Below, one piece after another: positions 30,306 through 41,053 of a stretch of 45,651 nt of DNA. Position 1 is the first letter of the stretch. Each line of letters starts with the position of its first letter. Below the pieces are notes generated by a model, which worked only from the letters and a program-made list of their open reading frames with translations, ran no database searches and was not told the DNA's origin. The stretch comes from Leptolyngbya sp. PCC 6406 (lineage in GTDB: Bacteria; Cyanobacteriota; Cyanobacteriia; Phormidesmidales; Phormidesmidaceae): positions 1,040,540-1,086,190 of the forward strand of contig NZ_KI913949.1 of the NCBI RefSeq assembly GCF_000332095.2, given 5' to 3'. The position numbers and the translations under genes are program-made.

Positions 30306-30523
30306 CACAGCGATCGCAATTGGTCCGCATTGATCTGAGACGGGGTAGATCTGAGACAGGGCAGATCCCCCTCCAGAATCGTAAGGCATGGCTCTGGAAG
30401 ATCATCCCAGCCTTCGGAGTATGCCCCAGATTGCCCCTGGGTTGCCAAGCGGGAACCCAGAACTTGCCGACAGGGTAGCCTAGGGGTAAGGGGCTGGGCT
30501 CCTCGCCGTTTCCCTCATCCCCT

Positions 30524-30568
30524 GGACTGTAAATGGGAGGACTGTGAATGGGAGGACTGTGAATGGGA
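30524..30568. repeat. 15-bp tandem repeat (x3) reaching the DUF2256 start
   Basis: Units ggactgtaaatggga (30524-30538), ggactgtgaatggga (30539-30553) and ggactgtgaatggga (30554-30568). The third contains the start codon of the DUF2256 gene (30563). Each unit carries an ATG in the same frame phase, so copy number may add alternative starts. Confidence 0.9.
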
Positions 30569-30724
30569 CGCGATCGCGCTAAATCTGATCTGCCCGTCAA
30601 GGTCTGCCCTGTCTGCCAGCGGCCCTTCACTTGGCGCAAAAAATGGGCCGACTGTTGGGATCAGGTGAAGTACTGTTCGGAGCGCTGCCGCCGCCGCCGC
30701 TCCCAAGCTTCTGGGCCGGAGTAG
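30563..30724 (+). CDS. DUF2256 domain-containing small Cys-rich protein
   Basis: 53 residues: [20 protein letters not shown], then [22 protein letters not shown] and an Arg-rich tail. The CPVCxRPFxWRKKW...C...YCSxRC pattern is the DUF2256 family, probably a zinc finger with two CxxC-type pairs. Short proteins of this kind are widespread and their function is unknown. It is just upstream of tRNA-Val on the same strand. Confidence 0.85.
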
Positions 30725-30824
30725 GGGGGATGGTCGGGTGGCTCTACACGCTTGTTGGCGCAATCCGTACCGCAATCCTCGATTGCATCTCCTCAGTCGA
30801 GTATGTTACTTTGATTCTCTGCAA

Positions 30825-30898
30825 GGACGTATAGCTCAGTTGGTTAGAGCACCACGTTGACATCGTGGGGGTCACTGGTTCGAGTCCAGTTACGTCCA
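30825..30898 (+). tRNA. tRNA-Val (anticodon GAC)
   Basis: 74 nt. The acceptor stem GGACGTA/TACGTCC is perfect and is followed by the discriminator A (30898). The D arm is GCTCAGTTGGTTAGAGC, the anticodon stem is CCACG/CGTGG around the loop TTGACAT (anticodon GAC) and the T arm is ACTGG TTCGAGT CCAGT. CCA is not encoded after the discriminator. Confidence 0.95.
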
Positions 30899-30906
30899 TT
30901 CTCCCC

Positions 30907-30932
30907 AAAGCCCTGACACTAGGGCTTTTCGT
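30907..30932 (+). terminator. Terminator after tRNA-Val
   Basis: Stem AAAGCCCT (30907-30914) / AGGGCTTT (30921-30928) with a 6-base loop, followed by TCGTGTTT. It lies 8 bp after the tRNA. Confidence 0.75.
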
Positions 30933-30969
30933 GTTTCTGGGATGATTTTGTAGAGGCGATCGCGCTTTA

Positions 30970-31855
30970 GAGGGTGTTTGAGAAATCGAAGCGGGTATCG
31001 AATTAGGCCAATCGGCGCACCATAATGCGGATCATGGCCAGATAGATAAAGGTCTCACTGGTCTGGGTCAAGCGTTCATAATCCTTGCTCAAGCGTCGGT
31101 AGCGGTTCCACCAGCCAAAAGTACGTTCTACCTTCCAACGCTGAGGGACAGGGACAAATTCCTTGCGCTCCGTGGGGCGTAAGGTCACCCAAATCACCCA
31201 GTCCAGCACATCAATGCCCCAGCGATAGAGGGGGTTACCGTCATAACCGCCATCGGCCCACACCGTGATCACCCGAGAGACCCTCTGCCCCATTGCCTTA
31301 ACGTTTGCCAGCACTTGTTTGGCCCCATCGCGTTCACCGACATTGGCCGCAGTGATCAGCACCCGTAACACCAAACCCAGGGTATCGACGACTAGGTGAC
31401 GCTTGCGACCCTTGATGTGCTTGGCCCCGTCATAGCCCACATCCTCATGCGTAAAGTTAGCCGTTTTCACGCTTTGACTATCGATGATCAACTCTGAGGG
31501 GCTTTCGGCACGACCCGAAACCAAACGGGTCAGGACATAGAACTCGTCATGAATCCTCTGCCAGGTGCCGTCTTTTTTCCAGCGACGGAAGTAGGTGTAA
31601 ACCGTTTGCCAGGGGGGGAAGTCTCCTGGTAGACCGCGCCAGGTGCACCCTTCGCACAGCACGTAGAAGATGGCGTTGAGGACTGCCCATAGGTCAGTGC
31701 TGCGAGGCCGGCCCCGTTCCTTGTTGGCAGGCAATCTAGCGGCAATCAACTCCAACTGGTCGTGGGTGAGATCACTCGGATATGCTTTGCTCATGCTCTC
31801 TGGGAAACTGATGCGTCATGTTCAGCTTATGCCTGGAGAGCTTTTTTACACCCTG
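30970..31855 (-). mobile_element. IS5-type insertion sequence, complete
   Basis: About 0.89 kb with one transposase gene. The left end GAGGGTGTTTGAGAAATC (30970 on) and the inverted right end CAGGGTGTAAAAAAG (to 31855) share AGGGTGT and some further bases, so terminal repeats are imperfect. I find no clear target duplication, so the exact ends are uncertain by a few bases. It sits between tRNA-Val and the PIN-domain gene. Confidence 0.75.
31003..31794 (-). CDS. IS5 family transposase
   Basis: 263 residues starting MSKAYPSDLTHDQLELIAARLP. The IS5 DDE motifs are visible: first D in IIDSQSVKTANF, second D in VWADGGYDG, and E in WKVERTFGWWNRYRRLSKDYERL. It is a complete single-frame transposase, so the element may be active. 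It is related to, but clearly different from, the second IS5-type transposase at 34324-35118. Confidence 0.93.
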   Translation of the reverse strand: MSKAYPSDLTHDQLELIAARLPANKERGRPRSTDLWAVLNAIFYVLCEGCTWRGLPGDFPPWQTVYTYFRRWKKDGTWQRIHDEFYVLTRLVSGRAESPSELIIDSQSVKTANFTHEDVGYDGAKHIKGRKRHLVVDTLGLVLRVLITAANVGERDGAKQVLANVKAMGQRVSRVITVWADGGYDGNPLYRWGIDVLDWVIWVTLRPTERKEFVPVPQRWKVERTFGWWNRYRRLSKDYERLTQTSETFIYLAMIRIMVRRLA

Positions 31856-31876
31856 ACCCCTTTATCAAACCCCCTC

Positions 31877-32551
31877 TTACCAAGCTGGCGGGATTGGGTC
31901 AATATCTTCTAACAAAAAGTCGCCATAGACCCATACCCGCGACTGATTGTAAAGATCGCTCAGCGTGGATTTTCGACTGCCTGTTTTATCCCAGGGTTGG
32001 AGATCTGAATCCAGTTCACAAAAGCCAGTCCAGGGGTGCCCTGCTTGCTGCAATTCTTCGGATTTAACTAATACAGCCGCTAATATGGCTAGATCATAAG
32101 GCTTCAAAGTCAGATCCATCGCGCCGATGGTGATTTGACGCGCTAGCATCGCCTCTGAAAGTGGAAAAATCTTGAGTCCTGAATGGGATGATAGTTGACT
32201 GATTCTCTCCGAAACCTTGGTGATTTCGTTGGTCACCAGTCCATCGAATTGGTCAAATACTCGAAACGTCGCCTCTGCATCATCAGCACTAATGTAATTA
32301 GCTTCCCTTGCCCATCGAACAAATTTTCGCAAATCTGTGGACCGCGATCGCGGGGCAAACCTACGGGGTACGGTTTCGCGGGCCTCAATCAGAGAGATGG
32401 CAGGGACGAAAAGCTGAAACTCACCCGCATCAGCGCGTTCTAGCAACTGAATCGCTTGTGGGCTTTGCAAGTGGGCGGGGGCGGTGACATCAACGACCCA
32501 ATTGGTTTCAACGAAAACTATGCTCGGCTTCAACTGGCAATTCTGCTCCAT
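31877..32551 (-). CDS. PIN-domain protein
   Basis: 224 residues. The N-terminus IVFVETNWVVDV has the PIN first acidic position as Glu (E15, usually Asp in DTN). PAISLIEARE supplies E56 and AMDLTLKPYDLAILAAVL supplies D146 and D153; FCELDSDLQPWD carries the last acidic residues. PIN domains are usually RNases of toxin-antitoxin or defence modules. The first 22 bp overlap the 3' end of the PD-(D/E)XK-like gene, so the pair is translated together. The E15 substitution could lower activity. The protein is longer than most VapC toxins (about 130), so it is not a typical VapC. Confidence 0.7.
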   Translation of the reverse strand: MEQNCQLKPSIVFVETNWVVDVTAPAHLQSPQAIQLLERADAGEFQLFVPAISLIEARETVPRRFAPRSRSTDLRKFVRWAREANYISADDAEATFRVFDQFDGLVTNEITKVSERISQLSSHSGLKIFPLSEAMLARQITIGAMDLTLKPYDLAILAAVLVKSEELQQAGHPWTGFCELDSDLQPWDKTGSRKSTLSDLYNQSRVWVYGDFLLEDIDPIPPAW

Positions 32552-33000
32552 CTGGGACCAGCGGCCCGAATTTCACCTAACTTTAGCAGGTTGATAATCG
32601 GCTCTCCTAGCAGTGTTCTGAGATCTTTAGGGAGCGCTGCTAGGCTTGTCGGTGTCTGTTTCAAGTGTTCTAGCCACCGTTGTACCCGAGATTCAAATTC
32701 AAGGCCCCGTTGCCCTTTCCACTGATCGTCCGCTGGGGGCAGTAGAGACTCGGGTAAGGTTGCCTCACCGACGACGGCAATGGATTCTCCGTGGGGTTTT
32801 TCTAGCGAATCTTTTAGCAGAGAAATTCGCTCTCCTGTCACGGCTAGGCCCACTGAGCAACCCATAGCTGTCATCAGGTGTTTCAACTGCATAACAGCAC
32901 CGTTATGGTCATCTGGTGTATCGGTGAGCTTAATCTCAACAACCGCCAGATATTCCCCATCGGGGCTCATGACAACAATGTCTGGATGTGGCGTTCTCAT
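32530..33000 (-). CDS. PD-(D/E)XK nuclease-like protein
   Basis: 156 residues. The N-terminus HPDIVVMSPDGEYLAVVEIKLTD has the D-X14-E-X-K pattern (D7, E22, K24) of restriction-type nucleases, with a following hydrophobic helix (AVMQLKHLMTAMGCSVGLAVTG). The C-terminal half is charged and ends in EIRAAGPRWSRIAS. It lacks the first helix with its Glu that many members have, as a stop lies 12 bp before the ATG (33000). With the overlapping PIN gene it forms a two-gene unit. An HsdR-N-like or NERD-like role in defence is an inference. Confidence 0.6.
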   Translation of the reverse strand: MRTPHPDIVVMSPDGEYLAVVEIKLTDTPDDHNGAVMQLKHLMTAMGCSVGLAVTGERISLLKDSLEKPHGESIAVVGEATLPESLLPPADDQWKGQRGLEFESRVQRWLEHLKQTPTSLAALPKDLRTLLGEPIINLLKLGEIRAAGPRWSRIAS

Positions 33001-33119
33001 GTATCCATCCTAGGGGCTGCACCCCTATCATGCCAGACCCTGACCTGCTCCATCCATGCCCTTTGGGCTAAGGCGGGAGCCCGGTATGCTTTGGGGGTTC
33101 CCTCGGTTGGGCGAAGGCT

Positions 33120-33446
33120 ATGCTGACGCTGATCAGAGCGCTACACACCCTGGTCTTTGGGGTCATGTTTGGCGCGATCCTCTTTTTGCTCTACTGCGGG
33201 ATGGTGAATCAGCTCTCGGTGTGGACGGCGATCGCCTTTGTCACTATCGCGATCGAGGTGGTGATCTATGCCAGCAATGGGATGAAGTGTCCCCTCAGAA
33301 CCTGGGCCGAACGCCTCACCCCCACCGGGCAACCTGTGGTGGATATCTACCTACCGCCTTGGCTATCGAGTCGGGTGGTGGCCATCTCGACGCCGTTGCT
33401 GGGGGTAGCCTGTGGTTTGCTTGTCCTGCGGTTGCTTACCCACTGA
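33120..33446 (+). CDS. Small membrane protein, unknown function
   Basis: 108 residues from ATG 33120. Hydrophobic segments: about 9-28 (LHTLVFGVMFGAILFLLYCG), 33-51 (VWTAIAFVTIAIEVVIYAS) and 83-105 (SSRVVAISTPLLGVACGLLVLRLL). The loop MKCPLRTWAERLTPTGQPVVDIYLP is conserved-looking and would lie between helices 2 and 3. I do not recognise a named family. It lies opposite in strand to the accessory genes around it and may belong to the older chromosome. Confidence 0.6.
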   Translation: MLTLIRALHTLVFGVMFGAILFLLYCGMVNQLSVWTAIAFVTIAIEVVIYASNGMKCPLRTWAERLTPTGQPVVDIYLPPWLSSRVVAISTPLLGVACGLLVLRLLTH

Positions 33447-33650
33447 CAGGACAAGGGCCGGAAAGTGAGCCAAAAACTGAGCCAAAAATTGCGGCCACGG
33501 CCAACGGTTGTCGTCAAACCCACGGGAACCATAGGACAGTCCTACAGGACATAGGACAGCTTTGTAAGAGCCACCCTGACTATTTTCTATTCGCTCTAGA
33601 AGACATGCATGTTATTTTCAACACTGGTAAATCATCAATGCTGTGAAAGT
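33447..33650. other. Intergenic stretch with short direct repeats
   Basis: Contains gtgagccaaaaactgagccaaaaat (about 33466-33490) and two copies of cataggacag (about 33530 and 33550). No gene is visible and the base composition becomes AT-richer towards 33600, where the CoiA-like gene begins. Confidence 0.4.
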
Positions 33651-34289
33651 TTATCTTTTTCGATAAACGGTTTTTTCACCGTCCAAGTTAATCTCGCAGT
33701 TACTACAGACATGTCCAGTTGCTATTATCTCCTTTGGCAAGTCAAGATCTGGGTTTACATGTTCATCCCAAAGCCATTTCAAACCTACAGTCCTGCTACA
33801 TTTAGGGCAGGCACTGGTGGGGTATGACCAATTAGATTGCTTATTATCCCAATAGCGAATCCGCACGCCTTTCTGTTCAGCCACCTTTAAATCTGAAGGG
33901 AAAAAATTGCCGCATAAGATTCCCTTGCTCAAGTTTGCTGCAACCAGCATTGGCTGCTGACACCATTTACAGTGACTTTGGATGACAGCTAGGTCCTTAC
34001 GGTTGGTGCGACAGCCACAGCGCTTGCACGTTGGATTCAGGCAGGACAATACGTCGTCTGGAATCATTGAGGATGAAATCCTGTCAAGGTCTGCTTCAGA
34101 TTTGATACGAAAAATAACTACCCCAATCTTTTGCCGCTCATAGTAGTCGAGAACCTTGGTCTCTGGTTCATGTGTGACGACAATCTCAACAACTGCAATC
34201 ACCTTCCCTGATGCATTGAAGAGAGCGACATCTGGCCGACAACGACCAAGATCATGTTCAATTGCAACACGAGTCGCCTGTTTAATTAA

Positions 34290-35200
34290 GAGGGTGTCTG
34301 AAAAGCTGGAATGTAGGTATGAATTAGCACGTTAGTCGCCTTAACATGACTCGAATATTGGCCACATAAATCCATGCCTCAGCGGTCTCTGGTAGGCGCT
34401 CATAGTCTTTACTCAAGCGGCGGCAAAAAGTAAACCAGCCAAATGTGCGCTCCACCACCCACCGCTTGGGTAACAGCACAAATCCCTGCGCACAGTCGGG
34501 GCGCTTGATCACCTCAATCACCCATCGAAAGCGGTCCATGATCTCTTTCATGAAATCGTTACCGCTATATCCCCCATCAACCCAAATGACACACAGGCGA
34601 GTGAACCACTGACTAACCTGATGCATTTTTTCTAGCACCTTTCGTGCGCCATCCCGCTCAGGGAGACTCGCTGCGGTAACCACAACCATCAGCACTAAAC
34701 CCATTGTGTCGACCACCACGTTTCGCTTCCGACCTTTGACCTTTTTGTTTGCATCGAAGCCGACCGACTCCGAAATGTAGACATCGCTGTTCACCGACTG
34801 ACTATCCATCACCGCTGCACTGGGAGACGCTTCGCGCCCCTCCGTTAACCGCACCAACTCCCGCAATCGGTGATTGATGTGTTCCCACACCCCATCATTG
34901 CGCCATTGGCGAAAATAATGGTAGACCGTTTTGGCCTTCGGGAAATCATGGGGTAAGCACCGCCACTTGGTGCTATTGTCCAGAACGTACAGAATCGCAT
35001 TGACCACTTCTCGCATATCCGTGCTCCGAGGTCGTCCACCAGGCTTCGCCGGAGGAATCAAGAGAGAGAGAATATCCCATTGTTCATCAGTCAAATCGGT
35101 GGGGTAGGATAATCGCATTGCCCTCAAAAACCCTATCAAGTGTACTTACTGACTGATAGAGTAGCGTTTTTGAGGGCCTTTCTACTTCTCAGACACCCTC
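34290..35200 (-). mobile_element. IS5-type insertion sequence with TAA target duplication
   Basis: 911 bp. The left end GAGGGTGTCTGAAAAG (34290 on) and the inverted right end GAGGGTGTCTGAGAAG (from 35200) match in 15 of 16 bases. Direct repeats of TAA flank it (34287-34289, 35201-35203). The element is inserted in the same orientation as the gene it disrupts. Confidence 0.95.
34324..35118 (-). CDS. IS5 family transposase
   Basis: 264 residues from ATG 35118 (MRLSYPTDLTDEQWDIL); the frame extends a few codons further upstream but this start is the family's usual one. DDE motifs: VMDSQSVNSD, VWVDGGYSGND, WVVERTFGWFTFCRRLSKDYERLPE. The frame is intact, so the element is potentially active. Confidence 0.93.
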   Translation of the reverse strand: MRLSYPTDLTDEQWDILSLLIPPAKPGGRPRSTDMREVVNAILYVLDNSTKWRCLPHDFPKAKTVYHYFRQWRNDGVWEHINHRLRELVRLTEGREASPSAAVMDSQSVNSDVYISESVGFDANKKVKGRKRNVVVDTMGLVLMVVVTAASLPERDGARKVLEKMHQVSQWFTRLCVIWVDGGYSGNDFMKEIMDRFRWVIEVIKRPDCAQGFVLLPKRWVVERTFGWFTFCRRLSKDYERLPETAEAWIYVANIRVMLRRLTC

Positions 35201-35644
35201 TAAGTTGCCAGTATGTTCTTCTAGGCAATAGCGACACCCCCAAGTAATCTGTAGTGCCTCCTTGGATGCGATGTGTGCTTCAAGCTTTTGGGCTATAAGC
35301 TTTTTGAAGCTGTAGTGCAGTACTGATTCAGGTGTACAGTTCTCTGTCAGTGCTTTGTGAGAAAAGTGGTGACGTTTTTTTTCTCCTTTCCGAGGAATCA
35401 TCTGCCCCTTGCAAATTGGGCAGGCATAAATCTGTATCTTGTCTGCTGCATCAATAAGAACTAATTTCCCTGTGCTATCAAGCGCGGCAGTGTACAGAAT
35501 TTGTTTGGATTTTTCCATCTCAGATATTGTAAAATCAGCGCGAACAGGAAACACTGCGTAAGCAAGAGAAGAGATTCTGGGTTCCAGTCTGATGCCAGAC
35601 TACTCTCAGCTTAAAATTCGTACATTCTTCAGAGATAACTACCT

Positions 35645-36219
35645 TCAACATTCCCACTGAATGCGATCAAACCTAGCTGGGTTGGCAGCGGTATACCTAA
35701 CCGTGTGCTGGATGTTTTTGTGGCCCAGGTATTCCTGAATGTCGCGGGTGGGTAAGCCCTGTTCCGCCAGAAAGTAACCGCAGGAGTGGCGCAGCATGTG
35801 GAGGTGAACAGGTAAGGGCAGCTCTGCCAACTCCCCAGCCCGCTTCATGATTTTGGCGATCGCGCCTGTGGTCAACGCCTTGCGTCGTTCTCCCGTGAAT
35901 ACGTGGGCGCTGTCGGGAAACTGCGATCGCAGCTCCGCCAGGGCCTCTAGTTCATCCTCCTGGAGGCGATGCACTCCGCTCATGCTGCCTTTGAGCCTGG
36001 TGATGCTGATGCTGCGGGCTTCCACCATGACGGCATCCCACTTCAGCAAACAAGCTTCCCCGGCCCTGAGGCCGTGGCGAAACATAACCAGTAGCAGGGT
36101 GCTGTCTCGCCATGGATAGCGCCCCGCAACCCGGCCACCTCGATCAACCGCTCCACTTCCTCGGCGGTGAGGTGTTCGCGGCTGCGATAGACCCAATTCT
36201 TCTGCCGAACCAGCATCAT
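35645..36219 (-). pseudogene. Tyrosine recombinase (core only), frameshifted
   Basis: From ATG 36219 (MMLVRQKNWVYRSREHLTAEEVERLIEVAGLRG) the frame leads out of the integrase sequence near 36120-36130; the rest (GRYPWRDSTLLLVMFRHGLRAGEACLLKW...) is in another frame. The total length is 575 bp, one base short of a multiple of three. All catalytic motifs are present: RHGLRAGEA (R), HMLRHSCGYF (HxxR), LGHKNIQHTVRYT (H, Y). No N-terminal SAM-like core-binding domain exists, as in the FimB-like short integrases. The shift falls in a G-rich stretch (cggggcgc), so a sequencing error or recent mutation is possible. Confidence 0.75.
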
Positions 36220-36396
36220 AGTCTTTCTGTACTACTGTCCATAAAATAGCTTCTTTTCGGACAGTTGGGGGTGCTGAAACCCTTGGTTTCTCGTTGGAGC
36301 AAGTTGGCTTCAGGATTCCTTATCAGTGGTCATCATGGGGCAAACGGCTGAAACCCTTGATTTTCCGTGGATTGTCTGCCAATTCATAAGAAGCGC

Positions 36397-36571
36397 TGAT
36401 GACAGGCTGAAAATAGCCTGCTGTGGGGGTGTCATCAAGTTGCCATCATCGTGTAATCAGATTGTCATCACTATCTGTCATCAGGTTGGGTCGGAGAGTG
36501 TCATCAGCAATCAGGGGTGACGTTATTAAATTGTCATCAGGGGTAATCTGAGAATTAAATCAGTGTCATCA
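36397..36571. promoter_or_regulatory. Array of TGTCATCA sites upstream of the small regulator-like gene
   Basis: Exact direct copies of TGTCATCA start at 36430, 36463, 36476, 36499, 36532 and 36564; an inverted copy (TGATGACA) lies at 36397, a 7-base copy (GTCATCA) at 36329, and near matches at 36442. Spacings between starts are 33, 13, 23, 33 and 32 bp. The last copy ends 9 bp before ATG 36581. It looks like iterated operator or iteron sites for a small DNA-binding protein, most simply the product of the gene it precedes. The gap 36220-36396 shows nothing else. Confidence 0.65.
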
Positions 36572-36580
36572 TTACCCACC

Positions 36581-36787
36581 ATGCCGAAACCACTGGGCTC
36601 TGTGCGGATTGCGCCTGAGCTATATCAACAAATCGAAACCTGTGCTGCTGAAGAAGGCTGCGATCGCGCCAAGGTGACTATCCCAGCGCTGGAGCATTCT
36701 CTGAGTCCCAGTAATGACAGCAGCCCCCAAACGAAACGACTAAAGGCCCGTATTGCCAAGCTGGAGGCCGCACTTCAGGCTCATTAG
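36581..36787 (+). CDS. Small regulator-like protein (possible ribbon-helix-helix)
   Basis: 68 residues from ATG 36581 (MPKPLGSVRIAPELYQQIETCAAEEGCDRAKVTIPALEHSL); GTG 36563, which overlaps the last TGTCATCA copy, is in frame but less likely. A short strand (SVRIAPELYQQI) followed by helices is what one expects of a ribbon-helix-helix protein, then a linker and a Lys/Arg-rich coiled coil (KRLKARIAKLEAALQA). The gene ends 20 bp before the NERD-helicase. I infer an autorepressor acting at the upstream array. The fold assignment is uncertain. Confidence 0.55.
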   Translation: MPKPLGSVRIAPELYQQIETCAAEEGCDRAKVTIPALEHSLSPSNDSSPQTKRLKARIAKLEAALQAH

Positions 36788-36807
36788 GGTCTGTCGGCTG
36801 AAACCCA

Positions 36808-38766
36808 ATGGCTCAAATGATTCCCGAAGCTATTCCGGGAAAGGCTAGTCAGGGAGAGCAGATGCTGTTCGCAATTTTGCGCGATCGCTTACCCCATGAC
36901 TTTCTGGTGTGGTACGAACCTCGGGTGAAAAATTTCTACCCTGACTTCCTGGTGTTGGGGCCGGGGTTTGGGGTGCTGATTCTGGAGGTGAAGGGCTGGT
37001 ATGCCAAGCAGATTGAACGGGCTAGCGATCGCACTTTTGACGTGCGCTGGAAGCGGGGAAATACGGTCAAGTTAGAAAGCTATCCCTCTCCGCTGCGCCA
37101 GGGTCATGGCTACTTTGGGCAGGTATCTGATGTGCTGATGGGCTATCCCATCATCTGCCAACCAGAGGGCAACTACCAGGGCCGATTGTCCTTCCCCGTG
37201 GGGGTGGGGGCGATCATGAGCAACATGACTGAGGCCCAGGCTCGTGAAGATAACCTCTATGGCCTCCTAGAAAAGCCCCAAACAGCCTACCGAGACGAAG
37301 TTTTGGACTGGGCTAACTGCACAGGCGATGCCTTGGTCCAGCGCCTCAAAGCCATGTTTACCGTGGACTTTGCCTTTTCCTGTCTCACCCCTGATCAAAT
37401 CAGCACGATCAAGGGCTGTCTTCATCCTGAAATGGCTATCAAAGAGGTGCCTGCCACCCAAATGAGCCTGCCGCTCTACCCCGGCGATGAAGTGCCAGAT
37501 CTGCCTGAAGATGCCACGGTGCTGCTGAGTCTGGATGTGGAGCAGGAGCGCCTGACCCGCCGCATGAAAGATGGCCATCGGGTGTTCTCTGGGGTGGCTG
37601 GCAGCGGTAAAACCCTAATTCTGCTGGCCCGTGCCAAAGCGTTGGCCAATCGTCTCCAGGCCCACCGCATTTTGGTGCTGTGCTTCAACACCACCCTAGC
37701 GGCTCACCTGCGATCTACTCTCCATGGGGATGGCCGTAACCCTCAGTATCGCCAACGAATAGAAGTGCGACATTTCCACGATTGGGCGCGATCGCTGCTG
37801 GGCAGTTTGCCCAACCATCGAGAATTTGCTGATGAAGAGGAATATAACGACTTTCTAGGCCAGCAGGTCTTGAAACGCCTCGTTGAACTGCCCCCCACAG
37901 ATCACTACGATTCCGTGTTGGTGGATGAAGGACATACCTTCTCCAGCAGTTGGTTCCTATGCTGTGTGGCGGCCCTGAAAGACCCTGAGAACGGTGATTT
38001 GCTGATCGTAAATGATGGTAGCCAGAGTCTCTACAAGCGCCGTAAGTTCACTTGGAAGTCAGTTGGCGTCCAAGCCCTAGGCCGCTCCAAGCGCCTCAAC
38101 CAGAACTATCGCAACACCCAAGAGATTTTGTCAGCGGCTTGGTCAGTGGTGCAGGGAACAGGCACCGATGGGGATGATGAAACTTTTCCCGCCGTCGAGC
38201 CCTCAGCGGCTCTCCGCCGTGGCCCCCGGCCTACACTCCACCTGGCCACCAGCCGCCCCGATGCGGTTGAGGCATTGTTGGAGAAAGTGCGATCGCTGTG
38301 TGAGAGCGGCTATTCACCAGCAGATCTGGCCATCGTCTACCGCCGCAAGGAAAAACGAGATGAAGCCCTCTTCCAAGACCTGTTGAAGCGCTTGACTGAT
38401 ATGGATCTGCGGCCCTACTGGGTAACCCAGAGCACGGCCAGCAAACAGACCTACAGTGCCACTGCTTCCGGTATTCGCATCGTAACGGCTCTATCATCCC
38501 TGGGTCTGGAGTTCAAAGTGGTGCTGCTGCTGTGGGTGGAGCAGTTTGCCGATTGCTGCAATGACGATGGGGAAATTGCAGCGATCGCCCGCCGTCAGCT
38601 CTATGTCGCCATGACCCGCGCCCAAGATGAGCTCCACCTGTTTGCTGGCAAGTATGCGCGACTGGTGGGGGAGTTGAAGGATTGTGGGGAAACGGATTGC
38701 CCTGAGTTTCTAGGGGGCCAGATGCAGTCCCTAGGAGAAACCGCCGTTACCCGATATTGTTCGTAG
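36808..38766 (+). CDS. NERD nuclease-superfamily I helicase fusion
   Basis: 652 residues. The N-terminal NERD domain (about 8-175) has E17 (SQGEQM), FYPDFLVLGPGFGVLILEVKGW with D46, E60 and K62, a PD-(D/E)XK nuclease pattern. The helicase part has Walker A GVAGSGKT (262-269), VLVDEGHTFSS (D373, E374), QSLYKRRKFTW, RLNQNYRNT, and motif VI RQLYVAMTRAQDEL near 600 (UvrD/Rep-like). Such NERD-helicases occur in phage-defence neighbourhoods. An alternative start at the fourth codon is possible. HIP1 sites are present in the gene, so it is not a very recent acquisition. The operon with the small regulator-like gene is the core of the possible system. Confidence 0.85.
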   Translation: MAQMIPEAIPGKASQGEQMLFAILRDRLPHDFLVWYEPRVKNFYPDFLVLGPGFGVLILEVKGWYAKQIERASDRTFDVRWKRGNTVKLESYPSPLRQGHGYFGQVSDVLMGYPIICQPEGNYQGRLSFPVGVGAIMSNMTEAQAREDNLYGLLEKPQTAYRDEVLDWANCTGDALVQRLKAMFTVDFAFSCLTPDQISTIKGCLHPEMAIKEVPATQMSLPLYPGDEVPDLPEDATVLLSLDVEQERLTRRMKDGHRVFSGVAGSGKTLILLARAKALANRLQAHRILVLCFNTTLAAHLRSTLHGDGRNPQYRQRIEVRHFHDWARSLLGSLPNHREFADEEEYNDFLGQQVLKRLVELPPTDHYDSVLVDEGHTFSSSWFLCCVAALKDPENGDLLIVNDGSQSLYKRRKFTWKSVGVQALGRSKRLNQNYRNTQEILSAAWSVVQGTGTDGDDETFPAVEPSAALRRGPRPTLHLATSRPDAVEALLEKVRSLCESGYSPADLAIVYRRKEKRDEALFQDLLKRLTDMDLRPYWVTQSTASKQTYSATASGIRIVTALSSLGLEFKVVLLLWVEQFADCCNDDGEIAAIARRQLYVAMTRAQDELHLFAGKYARLVGELKDCGETDCPEFLGGQMQSLGETAVTRYCS

Positions 38767-38794
38767 AATAGGGCAAAGCTTTCTCTAGATCCGT

Positions 38795-41053
38795 ATGAGC
38801 CCCTCCCCGCCGCCGAACCCGCCCCCTCGGACCTTTTTGGGTACTGTTACCCATGCTCTGAAGGCGGTTAAACAGCAGGTCAACTTCAAAGAACTGACTC
38901 TCAAATCGGGGGCGCGTCCAGCCCTCCTAGAGGTAGAGGTGAAGGGCGAACAGCAGCGCTATCCCTTGCTGGGGGACCGTTACATTGTGGGCCGCAGCTC
39001 CCAGAACAGCGACATCACGATTGATAGCCCCATCGTCAGCCAGGTTCACGCCTCCCTCACCCGCGACCCCAATCGGCCCGGACGGCCCTTTATCCTCAAG
39101 GATAAAAACTCTACCAACGGCCTGTATCGGGGCAAAAAGCGGCTGAACTACTGGATCTTGCAGCACGGGGATCGGCTCACCCTGGGGCCAGCGGACTTGG
39201 CCGATGCGGTAACGGTACATTACATTGATCCGCCGCCTTGGTATGTGCGGACTGCTCGCTATAGCCTCTACGGCTTCAGTGGCCTCACGGCGCTGGTGGG
39301 GCTGTGGATTGTGGGGTTGGAATGGCCTCGGATTCCCCTGCGACCGCTGCCGGAGTCGGTGCAGGGGCCGGTGATTATCTACGCCGAGGAGGGGGGGCAG
39401 ACGGTGCCTCTGCGGCCCGAGCCCACCCAAGCCCACCAGGAAAAGCGACGACTGGGGGAGTTTTCGGCCTTTCTGCCCAAGGCGGTGGTGGCGTCGGAGG
39501 ATTCCCGCTACTACTGGCACTTGGGGGTGGATCCCCTGGGGGTGACGCGGGCCTTGGTGACCAATGTGCGCGGGGGGGAGATTCGCGAGGGGGGCAGTAC
39601 GCTGACCCAGCAGCTTGCCCGTAGCATCTATCGGGAATATGTGGGGACGGAGGATTCTGCCGGACGCAAGGTGCGAGAGGCGGTGGTGGCGCTGAAGCTG
39701 GAGAGCTTCTACAGCAAGAATGATTTGTTGTTGCTGTACCTGAATCGGGTGTATTTGGGGGGCAATCTCTACGGCTTTGAGGATGCGGCTCAGTTTTACT
39801 TTGGCAAGTCGGCGTCAGATCTGGATCTGTCGGAGGCGGCGACGCTGGTGGGGATTTTGCCTGCCCCCAATGCGTTTAACCCGGTGCAGAACTATGAGGC
39901 GGCGGTGGCCTATCGCGATCGCGTTTTAGATCGTATGGCGGCTTTGGGGATGGTCAGCACTGAGGAGGCGCGGCGGGCACGGCGATCGCGGATTGAGATT
40001 AGCCCTAGGGCACGGCAGGAGTTGCAGAGTATTCGTGCTCCCTACTTTTACAGCCATGTCTTTGATGAGCTGGATCGGGTACTGGGGGCAGAGTTGGCGC
40101 GGGAGGGCAATTTCATTGTTGAGACCAGCCTTAATTTAACCCTGCAAACGCGGGCGGAACGGACCCTGGCGGAGGATATCGCCAGTAATGGCCAAGCCCT
40201 GGGCTATTCCCAGGGAGCCCTGGTGACTTTGAACAGCCAAAATGGCGAAATCCAAGCTCTCGTGGGGGGGGCCGACTACCAGACCAGCCAGTTCAATCGG
40301 GCGACCCAGGCCCTGCGGCAACCGGGATCTACCTTCAAGGTGTTTGCCTTTGCGGCGGCGTTGGAGGCGGGGATCTCCCCCGGTCGGGCTTGGGACTGTA
40401 GCGGACTGAACTGGGAGGGCCAGTTTTTTGAAGGCTGTCGCTCTGGCGGCGGCGCGGTGGATATGTATGGGGGCATGGCCCGCTCAGACAATGTGGTGGC
40501 GCTGCGGATGGCCCAGGAGGTGGGGTTAGACGCGGTGGTGCGGGTGGCCCAGCGCCTCGGCATCACCACAGAACTGCGGCTGTCGCCGGGATTGGTGTTG
40601 GGGGAAAGTGAGGTGACACCGATAGATCTGACGGGAGCCTTTGGTGCGATCTCAAATAGCGGGGTCTGGAATCCGCCCCATGGCATTCGGCGGGTACTGG
40701 ACAGCAGCGACTGCACCGACCCTAACGATGCCAATAGCTGTCGGGTGATCTACGAATTTGGCCAAACCGGAGACACCCAGCAGCAGGTGCTGGCCCCGCA
40801 AATTGCCGATCAGCTCACGGGCCTCCTTCAGGGGGTGGTACAGAGCGGCACCGGACGGGCAGCGGCCCTGGGACTGGGAGAAGCGGGGAAAACCGGGACC
40901 ACGAATGACAACCGAGATCTGTGGTTTGTGGGCTATGTCCCCAGTCGCAATCTGGTGACCGGTATTTGGCTAGGCAATGATGATAATGAACCCACCAGCG
41001 GCAGTAGTGGCCAAGCCGCCGCCCTCTGGGGCCGGTATATGAATGGCCTGTAG
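38795..41053 (+). CDS. Class A penicillin-binding protein with N-terminal FHA domain
   Basis: 752 residues. The FHA domain (about 42-143) shows YIVGRSSQNSDITID, SQVHASL (S82, H85) and KNSTNG (105-109), for binding phospho-threonine. One membrane helix (about 157-176) follows, then GT51 glycosyltransferase (EDSRYYWHLGVDP, catalytic E235; EGGSTLTQQLAR), and the transpeptidase with STFK (512-515), SDN (564-566) and KTGT (699-702). All active-site motifs are complete. It makes and cross-links peptidoglycan in the periplasm while the cytoplasmic FHA can receive Ser/Thr-kinase signals. FHA-PBP fusions are known from cyanobacteria. Confidence 0.92.
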   Translation: MSPSPPPNPPPRTFLGTVTHALKAVKQQVNFKELTLKSGARPALLEVEVKGEQQRYPLLGDRYIVGRSSQNSDITIDSPIVSQVHASLTRDPNRPGRPFILKDKNSTNGLYRGKKRLNYWILQHGDRLTLGPADLADAVTVHYIDPPPWYVRTARYSLYGFSGLTALVGLWIVGLEWPRIPLRPLPESVQGPVIIYAEEGGQTVPLRPEPTQAHQEKRRLGEFSAFLPKAVVASEDSRYYWHLGVDPLGVTRALVTNVRGGEIREGGSTLTQQLARSIYREYVGTEDSAGRKVREAVVALKLESFYSKNDLLLLYLNRVYLGGNLYGFEDAAQFYFGKSASDLDLSEAATLVGILPAPNAFNPVQNYEAAVAYRDRVLDRMAALGMVSTEEARRARRSRIEISPRARQELQSIRAPYFYSHVFDELDRVLGAELAREGNFIVETSLNLTLQTRAERTLAEDIASNGQALGYSQGALVTLNSQNGEIQALVGGADYQTSQFNRATQALRQPGSTFKVFAFAAALEAGISPGRAWDCSGLNWEGQFFEGCRSGGGAVDMYGGMARSDNVVALRMAQEVGLDAVVRVAQRLGITTELRLSPGLVLGESEVTPIDLTGAFGAISNSGVWNPPHGIRRVLDSSDCTDPNDANSCRVIYEFGQTGDTQQQVLAPQIADQLTGLLQGVVQSGTGRAAALGLGEAGKTGTTNDNRDLWFVGYVPSRNLVTGIWLGNDDNEPTSGSSGQAAALWGRYMNGL

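What the first reader, a model, noticed from the sequence alone, without database searches (positions are those of the whole stretch)
36397..38766. Regulator-like gene with TGTCATCA array in operon with a NERD-helicase: candidate self-controlled defence module
Six exact direct TGTCATCA copies plus one inverted copy lie within 175 bp directly before a 68-residue regulator-like gene, which ends 20 bp before a NERD-nuclease/SF1-helicase fusion. Spacings (33, 13, 23, 33, 32 bp) are irregular, yet several are near three helical turns. An octamer in this number is far above chance. NERD-helicases are recurrent in defence islands, but a small protein with an iterated-site operator and this helicase in one operon is an arrangement I do not know as described. 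Inference: the small protein binds the array cooperatively and keeps the nuclease-helicase silent until needed.
Basis: partly seen in the sequence, partly recalled or inferred. Interest (0 to 1): 0.7.

Follow-up and report, generated by a model that had tools for sequence, protein, structure and literature searches.

The report
Recombinase-linked repressor array before NERD-helicase
The repeated DNA word and the small protein behind it look like the regulatory half of a recombination module that recurs on cyanobacterial plasmids and chromosomes; here its recombinase gene reads as broken and a nuclease-helicase gene sits directly behind it.

Summary
In detail: six direct and one inverted TGTCATCA within 175 bp, a 68-residue gene, and a NERD/SF1 helicase 20 bp downstream. 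The small protein is a ribbon-helix-helix (RHH) protein by family profile. The array goes with the RHH gene, not the helicase: of 22 helicase loci examined only the window has it, whereas such arrays precede related RHH genes in seven other genomes of four families (an eighth is split between contigs). All 44 spacings under 40 bp in eight arrays are 10-13, 21-24 or 31-34 bp (period 10.8): one face of the DNA.

The recurrent unit is: divergent small tyrosine recombinase, inverted-repeat core, iterated operator, RHH gene. Core sequence follows the recombinase, array type follows the RHH protein. Three of eight named plasmid regions viewed carry the gene pair. In the window the recombinase reads frameshifted.

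Best reading: RHH dimers fill the array, repress their own operon (here perhaps with the helicase) and, by analogy with TnpS/TnpT, may serve the recombinase. RHH-helicase adjacency recurs in two other genomes with another array. No binding, repression or recombination was measured. New variant of a known kind.

The parts
35645..36213 (-). small tyrosine recombinase, divergent from the RHH gene; reads in two frames that meet near 36121-36124
   Evidence: Pfam Phage_integrase E 7e-34. tblastn of three relatives matches frame -1 up to 36124 and frame -2 from 36121 to 36213. R, K, H, R, H and Y columns all present in the window copy
36234..36265 (.). candidate recombinase core site ACTGTCC-N18-GGACAGT
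   Evidence: Inverted repeat; no other copy found in the genome; outer 8-nt arms 94-100% identical to the cores of L147 and L158, whose recombinases are 65-66% identical but whose RHH proteins are 23-25% identical
36270..36370 (+). two copies of GCTGAAACCCTTG between core and array; GAAAC blocks at a similar place in part of the relatives
   Evidence: role unknown
36397..36404 (-). inverted TGTCATCA copy
36430..36571 (+). six exact TGTCATCA repeats (36430, 36463, 36476, 36499, 36532, 36564) plus one-mismatch copies at 36441 and 36452: probable RHH operator array
36581..36787 (+). 68-aa ribbon-helix-helix protein with a predicted C-terminal helix
   Evidence: Profile alignment with relatives, two of which pass Pfam RHH_1; PDB profile hit 2k9i; low-confidence model with helices 12-25, 29-40, 49-67
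36797..36806 (+). GCTGAAACCC motif between RHH stop and helicase start, unexplained
36808..38766 (+). NERD nuclease-related domain / SF1 helicase fusion, 652 aa
   Evidence: Pfam NERD, UvrD-helicase and UvrD_C above cut-off; PADLOC C3a187 E 5.5e-92

Best explanation
The array and the 68-aa gene are the operator and RHH protein of a cyanobacterial plasmid-type site-specific recombination module (recombinase <- core site | phased operator array | -> RHH). RHH dimers bind the octamers side by side on one face of the DNA, cover the region up to the RHH start and so repress the RHH operon; when another gene stands directly downstream in the same direction, as the NERD-helicase does here, it shares that control. 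In intact modules the same RHH filament probably also shapes the recombination site, as a divergently encoded helper does for TnpS/TnpT. In this window the recombinase reads frameshifted, so what remains is a self-repressed RHH-helicase operon. Shown by comparison: recurrent module, array type tracking RHH, core tracking recombinase, helical phasing. Inferred: binding, repression, accessory role in recombination, control of the helicase.
For: Divergent recombinase directly upstream in 23 of 38 assessable RHH loci, and in 23 of 28 once the ten NPF-type RHH loci (none has one) are set apart. Array search in 388 genomes: 11 have at least 4 clustered TGTCATCA copies; in 9 the array belongs to an RHH gene, one of them (G007) split between two contigs and one (G331) with the RHH in two frames. 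Phasing: 44 of 44 spacings under 40 bp at 10-13, 21-24 or 31-34 bp, best period 10.78, 0 of 5000 uniform null sets as good. TGTCACCA x7 goes with a changed strand NPRLSLRI; GTTWAC-type sites go with KPxxxAR/GR strands, in most cases as two triads of 9-bp steps, about -98/-89/-80 and -30/-21/-12; 75 sites against a shuffle mean of 2.4 in 19 modules. The last repeat overlaps the RHH ATG in L144, L148 and L165. Core similarity follows recombinase (partial r 0.56, 0 of 5000 permutations); array type follows RHH (partial r 0.75) and not recombinase (-0.04) in 18 modules. Same gene pair on three named plasmids.
Against: No binding, repression or recombination has been measured. The 23 of 28 is biased: the survey profile was built from six RHH proteins of which five had a recombinase neighbour, and many loci are related. 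L136, L148 and L165 have arrays but no adjacent full recombinase, nor has L183. In L136 the octamers face the other way. Core similarity also correlates weakly with RHH (partial r 0.30, 124 of 5000), and cores were picked by hand. A core-type inverted repeat starting at 232-266 bp was found in 15 of 20 GTTWAC/KPMVGAR modules, without shuffle control. The GTTWAC triad by itself is not rare: the reversed control pattern hit more genomes (28 by my count) than the pattern (13). No second core in the genome. No sigma-70-like promoter found in 36190-36860. In 4 of 7 TGTCATCA/TGTCACCA relatives the next ORF after RHH is on the other strand. Structure model weak (pLDDT 67), no PDB fold match at E <= 0.001. 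Five of eight plasmid regions viewed have an RHH relative without an adjacent annotated recombinase.
Confidence: 0.6

Rival explanations
1. Dedicated defence switch: the RHH and its array evolved to keep the NERD-helicase silent until infection.
For: Codirectional genes 20 bp apart. RHH-NERD adjacency in L009/L134 and L019/L132 with a different array, and a third kind of array plus an unrelated 115-aa gene before NERD in L018, which suggests repeated coupling. PADLOC model C3a187.
Against: 0 of 21 other NERD loci have clustered TGTCATCA and 19 of 21 have no RHH gene. NERD follows RHH in only 2 of 40 fetched RHH loci besides the window.
Confidence: 0.15
2. Partition site: the array is a centromere and the RHH a centromere-binding protein of a plasmid partition system.
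For: Phased direct repeats upstream of an RHH gene resemble plasmid centromeres bound by RHH proteins (recalled). The profile reaches ORF omega only at E 0.78. ParA-like ORFs (by eye) lie near several modules, and one is annotated on the Calothrix plasmid.
Against: Where seen upstream, the ParA-like ORF lies beyond the recombinase. No ParA is annotated on L171 or in the shown part of L173 (that gene table is incomplete).
Confidence: 0.12
3. Plain autorepressor without any part in recombination; recombinase and RHH are merely neighbours in a plasmid backbone.
For: Repeats run into the RHH start codon in three relatives. Arrays persist beside RHH genes without an adjacent full recombinase in L136, L148 and L165.
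Against: The pair recurs across at least four recombinase groups and several RHH types, and a core-type repeat stands at a similar distance from the RHH start in 15 of 20 modules.
Confidence: 0.3
4. Transposon end: the octamers are transposase sites of a Tn7-like or CRISPR-associated transposon.
For: Such ends carry several direct repeats, some with a similar word (recalled, not tested).
Against: 9 of 11 clusters of at least 4 copies belong to an RHH gene. I saw no transposase of that kind among the window ORFs of at least 130 aa (by eye; the relevant profiles were not run).
Confidence: 0.02

Closest known systems
TnpS/TnpT-rst resolution system of Tn4651-type Tn3-family transposons (PMC7157771, passages seen)
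   Same: Tyrosine recombinase and helper protein encoded divergently, with the recombination site, built of inverted repeats, between the two genes
   Different: [quoted passage not shown] here the partner is an RHH protein with a phased array of direct repeats, seen on plasmids and chromosomes; a transposase partner was not looked for
KfrA autoregulator of plasmid RA3 (PMC7783346, passages seen)
   Same: Plasmid-borne DNA-binding autoregulator whose operator is a set of short repeats over its own promoter
   Different: KfrA binds by a helix-turn-helix and is almost entirely alpha-helical; its operator is five 9-nt repeats; no recombinase partner in the passages read
ORF56-type RHH protein (2k9i)
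   Same: Sequence match of the family profile over the RHH region (E 1.5e-6)
   Different: Here a C-terminal helical extension, a phased octamer array and a recombinase neighbour
cer-type plasmid resolution with ArgR/PepA accessory sequences (recalled)
   Same: Short core site plus an accessory stretch of comparable length bound by other proteins
   Different: Accessory proteins there are host factors; here the accessory candidate is encoded beside the site

Membership tests
Ribbon-helix-helix (Pfam RHH_1/CopG) | Sequence match to RHH profile | tested here: met
   Met through relatives: window protein has no RHH match of its own; of eight relatives scanned, L145 (22.6 bits) and L147 (21.7) pass the 20.5-bit RHH_1 cut-off, three more are listed below it, three show none; family profile hits 2k9i E 1.5e-6
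Ribbon-helix-helix (Pfam RHH_1/CopG) | Strand-helix-helix fold as dimer | tested here: inconclusive
   Monomer model: coil, helix 12-25, helix 29-40, helix 49-67, mean pLDDT 67; no PDB fold match E <= 0.001
Tyrosine recombinase | R, K, H, R, H and Y columns and Phage_integrase match | tested here: met
   Phage_integrase E 7e-34 for the window (relatives not scanned); R, K, H, R, Y in 27 of 27 sequences and the second H in 24 of 27; window copy reads frameshifted
TnpS/TnpT-type resolution system | Divergent recombinase and helper with site between | tested here: met
   Layout only: 23 of 28 non-NPF RHH loci; core inverted repeats between the genes
TnpS/TnpT-type resolution system | Helper homologous to TnpT and link to a Tn3-family transposase | not tested
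   No TnpT sequence was compared; no tnpA-like gene was looked for
TnpS/TnpT-type resolution system | Helper needed for recombination at the core | not testable with these tools
   Needs a recombination assay
RHH centromere partition system | Array and RHH paired with their own ParA or ParM | tested here: inconclusive
   ParA-like ORFs near several modules, read by eye, one annotated; none annotated on L171 or in the shown part of L173
NERD-helicase defence system | Homology to a listed defence model | tested here: met
   PADLOC C3a187 NERD+UvrD E 5.5e-92; the model name does not show tested function
NERD-helicase defence system | Protection against phage or plasmid | not testable with these tools
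   Needs challenge experiments

The most novel reading that the evidence does not exclude
A family of self-contained recombination modules, spread over cyanobacterial plasmids and islands, in which the RHH autorepressor doubles as the architectural partner of a divergently encoded tyrosine recombinase: a helically phased RHH filament next to the core senses or sets site geometry. Recombinase-core and RHH-array are two interchangeable lock-and-key pairs that have been reshuffled, and the operon end downstream of RHH takes up passengers such as NERD-helicases, placing a possible defence nuclease under the element's own repressor.
Probability: 0.35. Interest if true: 0.65.

Novelty: new variant of a known kind. 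Interest (0 to 1): 0.5.

Why it matters
It gives a DNA-recognition series (TGTCATCA, TGTCACCA and GTTWAC arrays against matching RHH strands) and a recombinase-core series, useful for testing how RHH proteins read iterated operators. It also suggests how small cyanobacterial plasmids may control a recombinase, a point for which the listings of my searches of the held open-access library showed no description. For the finding as given, it moves the array from a helicase switch to a mobile-element module.

Tried and rejected
Helicase-specific operator: rejected as the general rule by the 22-locus comparison (one search listed further hits for which no locus was fetched). Idea that GCTGAAACCC is the recombinase attachment site joining the helicase as a cassette (note): CGGCTGAAACCC with up to one mismatch has 63 places in the genome against 46 for the reversed pattern, and the better core candidate is the inverted repeat at 36234-36265; the copy before the helicase start stays unexplained. 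Integrated plasmid with two core copies: only one core found. A six-genome search for the AGTTGCT core found six exact places, five at modules and one (G005:C5:2477380) without RHH or recombinase nearby. RHH in viral contigs: single-protein scan found none. Fold search uninformative. Rfam: only the tRNA in 30500-39000. Transposon-end idea came from memory and was dropped. Island boundaries: six PBP-gene loci of relatives have no NERD-helicase and no RHH or recombinase profile hit; in L213, L214 and L216 an ORF that looks like lspA (by eye) stands upstream, so the window region differs, but ends were not found.

Rows dropped before counts: from 41 RHH loci, L129, L138 and L167 (cut contig or run of N upstream) were set aside, leaving 38; one 45-bp spacing in L144 was left out of the 44 spacings; L096 and L097 repeat the contigs of L019 and L015 (same length and position) and were not counted again. 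Of the RHH hits I fetched 40 loci, nearly all from the top of the list; weaker hits were not examined. The output was cut in the middle.

Full report
What is there. The window lies in a 5.78-Mb genome of three contigs. TGTCATCA occurs nine times in the window against 1.34 expected, seven of them in 36397-36571. Two same-strand copies with 1-30 nt between them occur nowhere else in the genome. The 68-aa ORF and the 652-aa NERD/UvrD-type ORF follow as described, 20 bp apart.

The small protein. Pfam gives nothing useful for the window protein. A profile made from it and five relatives finds matches in 182 of 388 genomes of the class at E <= 0.01, with at most 15 candidates scored per genome; the weak hits were not examined. 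Of eight relatives scanned, two pass the Pfam RHH_1 cut-off and three more are listed below it, and the 21-member profile hits the solved protein ORF56 at 1.5e-6. The structure model has the expected helices but low confidence and no fold match. I call it an RHH protein on sequence grounds.

The array belongs to the RHH gene, not to the helicase. A search of 388 genomes for three clustered octamers matched 19; the reversed control pattern matched 5 by my count of rows. Eleven of the 19 have at least four copies in a cluster. Eight of these lie directly before an RHH gene (G000, G017, G024, G041, G066, G192, G289, G331, the last with the RHH in two frames); in G007 array and RHH lie on two contig ends and the array matches that of G066. 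The two others are G170 (mixed orientations, no RHH hit) and G098 (24-bp tandem repeat, no RHH hit). The eight genomes with only three copies have no RHH hit in the fetched loci. Conversely, 0 of 21 other NERD-helicase loci have clustered octamers (single copies in L024, L027, L095) and 2 of 21 have an RHH gene. A relative with strand NPRLSLRI has seven TGTCACCA instead.

Geometry. In eight arrays (window, L128, L130, L136, L144, L145, L148, L165) all 44 spacings below 40 bp are 10-13 (17), 21-24 (19) or 31-34 bp (8); the best period is 10.78 bp, and 0 of 5000 random sets drawn uniformly from 9-34 bp reach that concentration. L130 and L145 share part of their spacing pattern, so the arrays are not fully independent. 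The last repeat overlaps the RHH start codon in L144, L148 and L165. RHH proteins with KPxxxAR or GR strands have instead GTTWAC-like hexamers, in most cases as two triads at 9-bp steps close to -98/-89/-80 and -30/-21/-12 from the anchor codon; L142 and L143 show few. In 19 modules 75 GT[TC][TA]AC sites lie in the last 130 bp against a shuffle mean of 2.4 and a maximum of 9, and 2 in the control block further upstream. A genome-wide search for one triad gave 18 places by my grouping of its rows, 10 of them at recombinase-RHH modules; but the reversed control pattern hit more genomes (28 against 13), so a single triad is no marker by itself.

The recombinase. Of 41 RHH loci, 38 could be judged; 23 have a divergent small tyrosine recombinase directly upstream. 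The ten loci of the NPF type lack it, so the figure is 23 of 28 for the rest, the exceptions being L136, L142, L148, L164 and L165. The survey started from RHH proteins mostly beside a recombinase, so this figure is biased upward. R, K, H, R and Y are present in 27 of 27 aligned recombinases and the second H in 24. Of eight plasmid regions viewed (13 records hit), the pair is annotated on three: Gloeocapsa pGLO7428.04, a Calothrix sp. 336/3 plasmid and Scytonema sp. HK-05 plasmid2. The other five, three Crinalium plasmids, pAQ1 and a Gloeocapsopsis plasmid, show an RHH relative without an adjacent annotated recombinase; the plasmid gene table is incomplete. In the window the recombinase reads in two frames that meet near 36121-36124, so it is broken or misread.

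Two lock-and-key pairs. Between recombinase and array lies an inverted repeat that I take as the core site: in the window 36234-36265, with no other copy found in the genome. In 15 of 20 GTTWAC/KPMVGAR modules such a repeat starts 232-266 bp before the RHH anchor (no shuffle control). In 18 modules, with cores picked by hand, core-arm similarity follows recombinase similarity when RHH similarity is held constant (partial r 0.56, 0 of 5000 permutations as high) and RHH less (0.30, 124 of 5000), while array type, assigned by me, follows RHH (0.75) and not recombinase (-0.04; no permutation run for these two). The window and L158 make the point: recombinases 66% and core arms 100% identical, RHH proteins 23% identical, arrays different.

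The helicase. RHH directly before NERD is seen in the window, G005 and G061, the last two with the GTTWAC-type array; in G061 the helicase match is in two frames near its end. Among 40 fetched RHH loci only these two hold a NERD homologue, and some contigs end soon after the RHH gene. In G075 (L018) a recombinase, an array of CACCCG-containing repeats and an unrelated 115-aa gene stand before NERD. So 4 of 22 NERD loci follow an array-preceded small gene, with three array types; this recurrence suggests that sharing the promoter is tolerated or useful. Three plasmid NERD genes show no RHH or recombinase profile hit within 4 kb. After the RHH gene of the seven other TGTCATCA/TGTCACCA loci the next ORF is on the other strand in L144, L145, L148 and L165, close and codirectional in L128 and L130.

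Mechanism. Most likely RHH dimers fill the phased array up to the start codon and repress the operon. I rate operator and autorepression as likely (about 0.8), a part in recombination as open (about 0.4), and control of the helicase in this strain as plausible (about 0.5); none was measured. A sigma-70 scan found no promoter in 36190-36860 (0.9 expected in shuffles) and one weak terminator-like site at 36294-36313 (0.7 expected), so the promoter is not placed.

Comparison with known systems. The layout matches TnpS/TnpT, where recombinase and helper are divergent and the rst site lies between (PMC7157771, passages); the helper there is described as without homologues, so membership is not claimed. 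An operator of short repeats over the gene's own promoter is known for KfrA (PMC7783346, passages). Partition by RHH proteins and cer-type resolution are recalled. Four searches of the held open-access library, judged from their listings, gave no paper that describes a recombinase-RHH-array module in cyanobacteria; subscription papers are mostly not held. (38 papers, 20 listed) and on NERD and defence (6 listed) were judged by their listings only.

Noticed in passing
31003-31794 and 34324-35139: IS5-like transposases on the minus strand (Pfam DUF4096 and DDE_Tnp_1 for the second; the first by resemblance); with the tRNA-Val at 30825-30898 and lower GC they suggest a mobile, decayed stretch before the module.
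   Followed up: partly
35189-35554: CoiA N-terminal-like ORF (PF25164) between the second IS and the recombinase; looks incomplete.
   Followed up: no
36797-36806: GCTGAAACCC, also found twice before the array, stands directly between the RHH stop and the helicase start. Possible trace of how the two genes were joined.
   Followed up: partly
L018 about 900-1100 (G075:C13): A recombinase with a different array (CACCCG-containing repeats) and an unrelated 115-aa gene before a NERD-helicase: a non-RHH version of the same layout.
   Followed up: partly
L177 (G170:C2 near 85100): Nine TGTCATCA copies in both orientations with no RHH hit, beside an ORF that looks like a KilA-N or antirepressor protein (by eye).
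   Followed up: no
L153-L157, L159-L163: NPF-type RHH genes in ten genomes without recombinase neighbour or octamer array: a separate gene of unknown role.
   Followed up: no
G083:C1, G083:C7, G076:C593: Pairs of TGTCATCA in near-identical 34-nt units at several places, some near contig ends; possibly ends of a repeated element.
   Followed up: no
L017: Recombinase profile hit (E 2e-20) in an ORF that reads like RNase H; not resolved, possibly a profile artefact.
   Followed up: no
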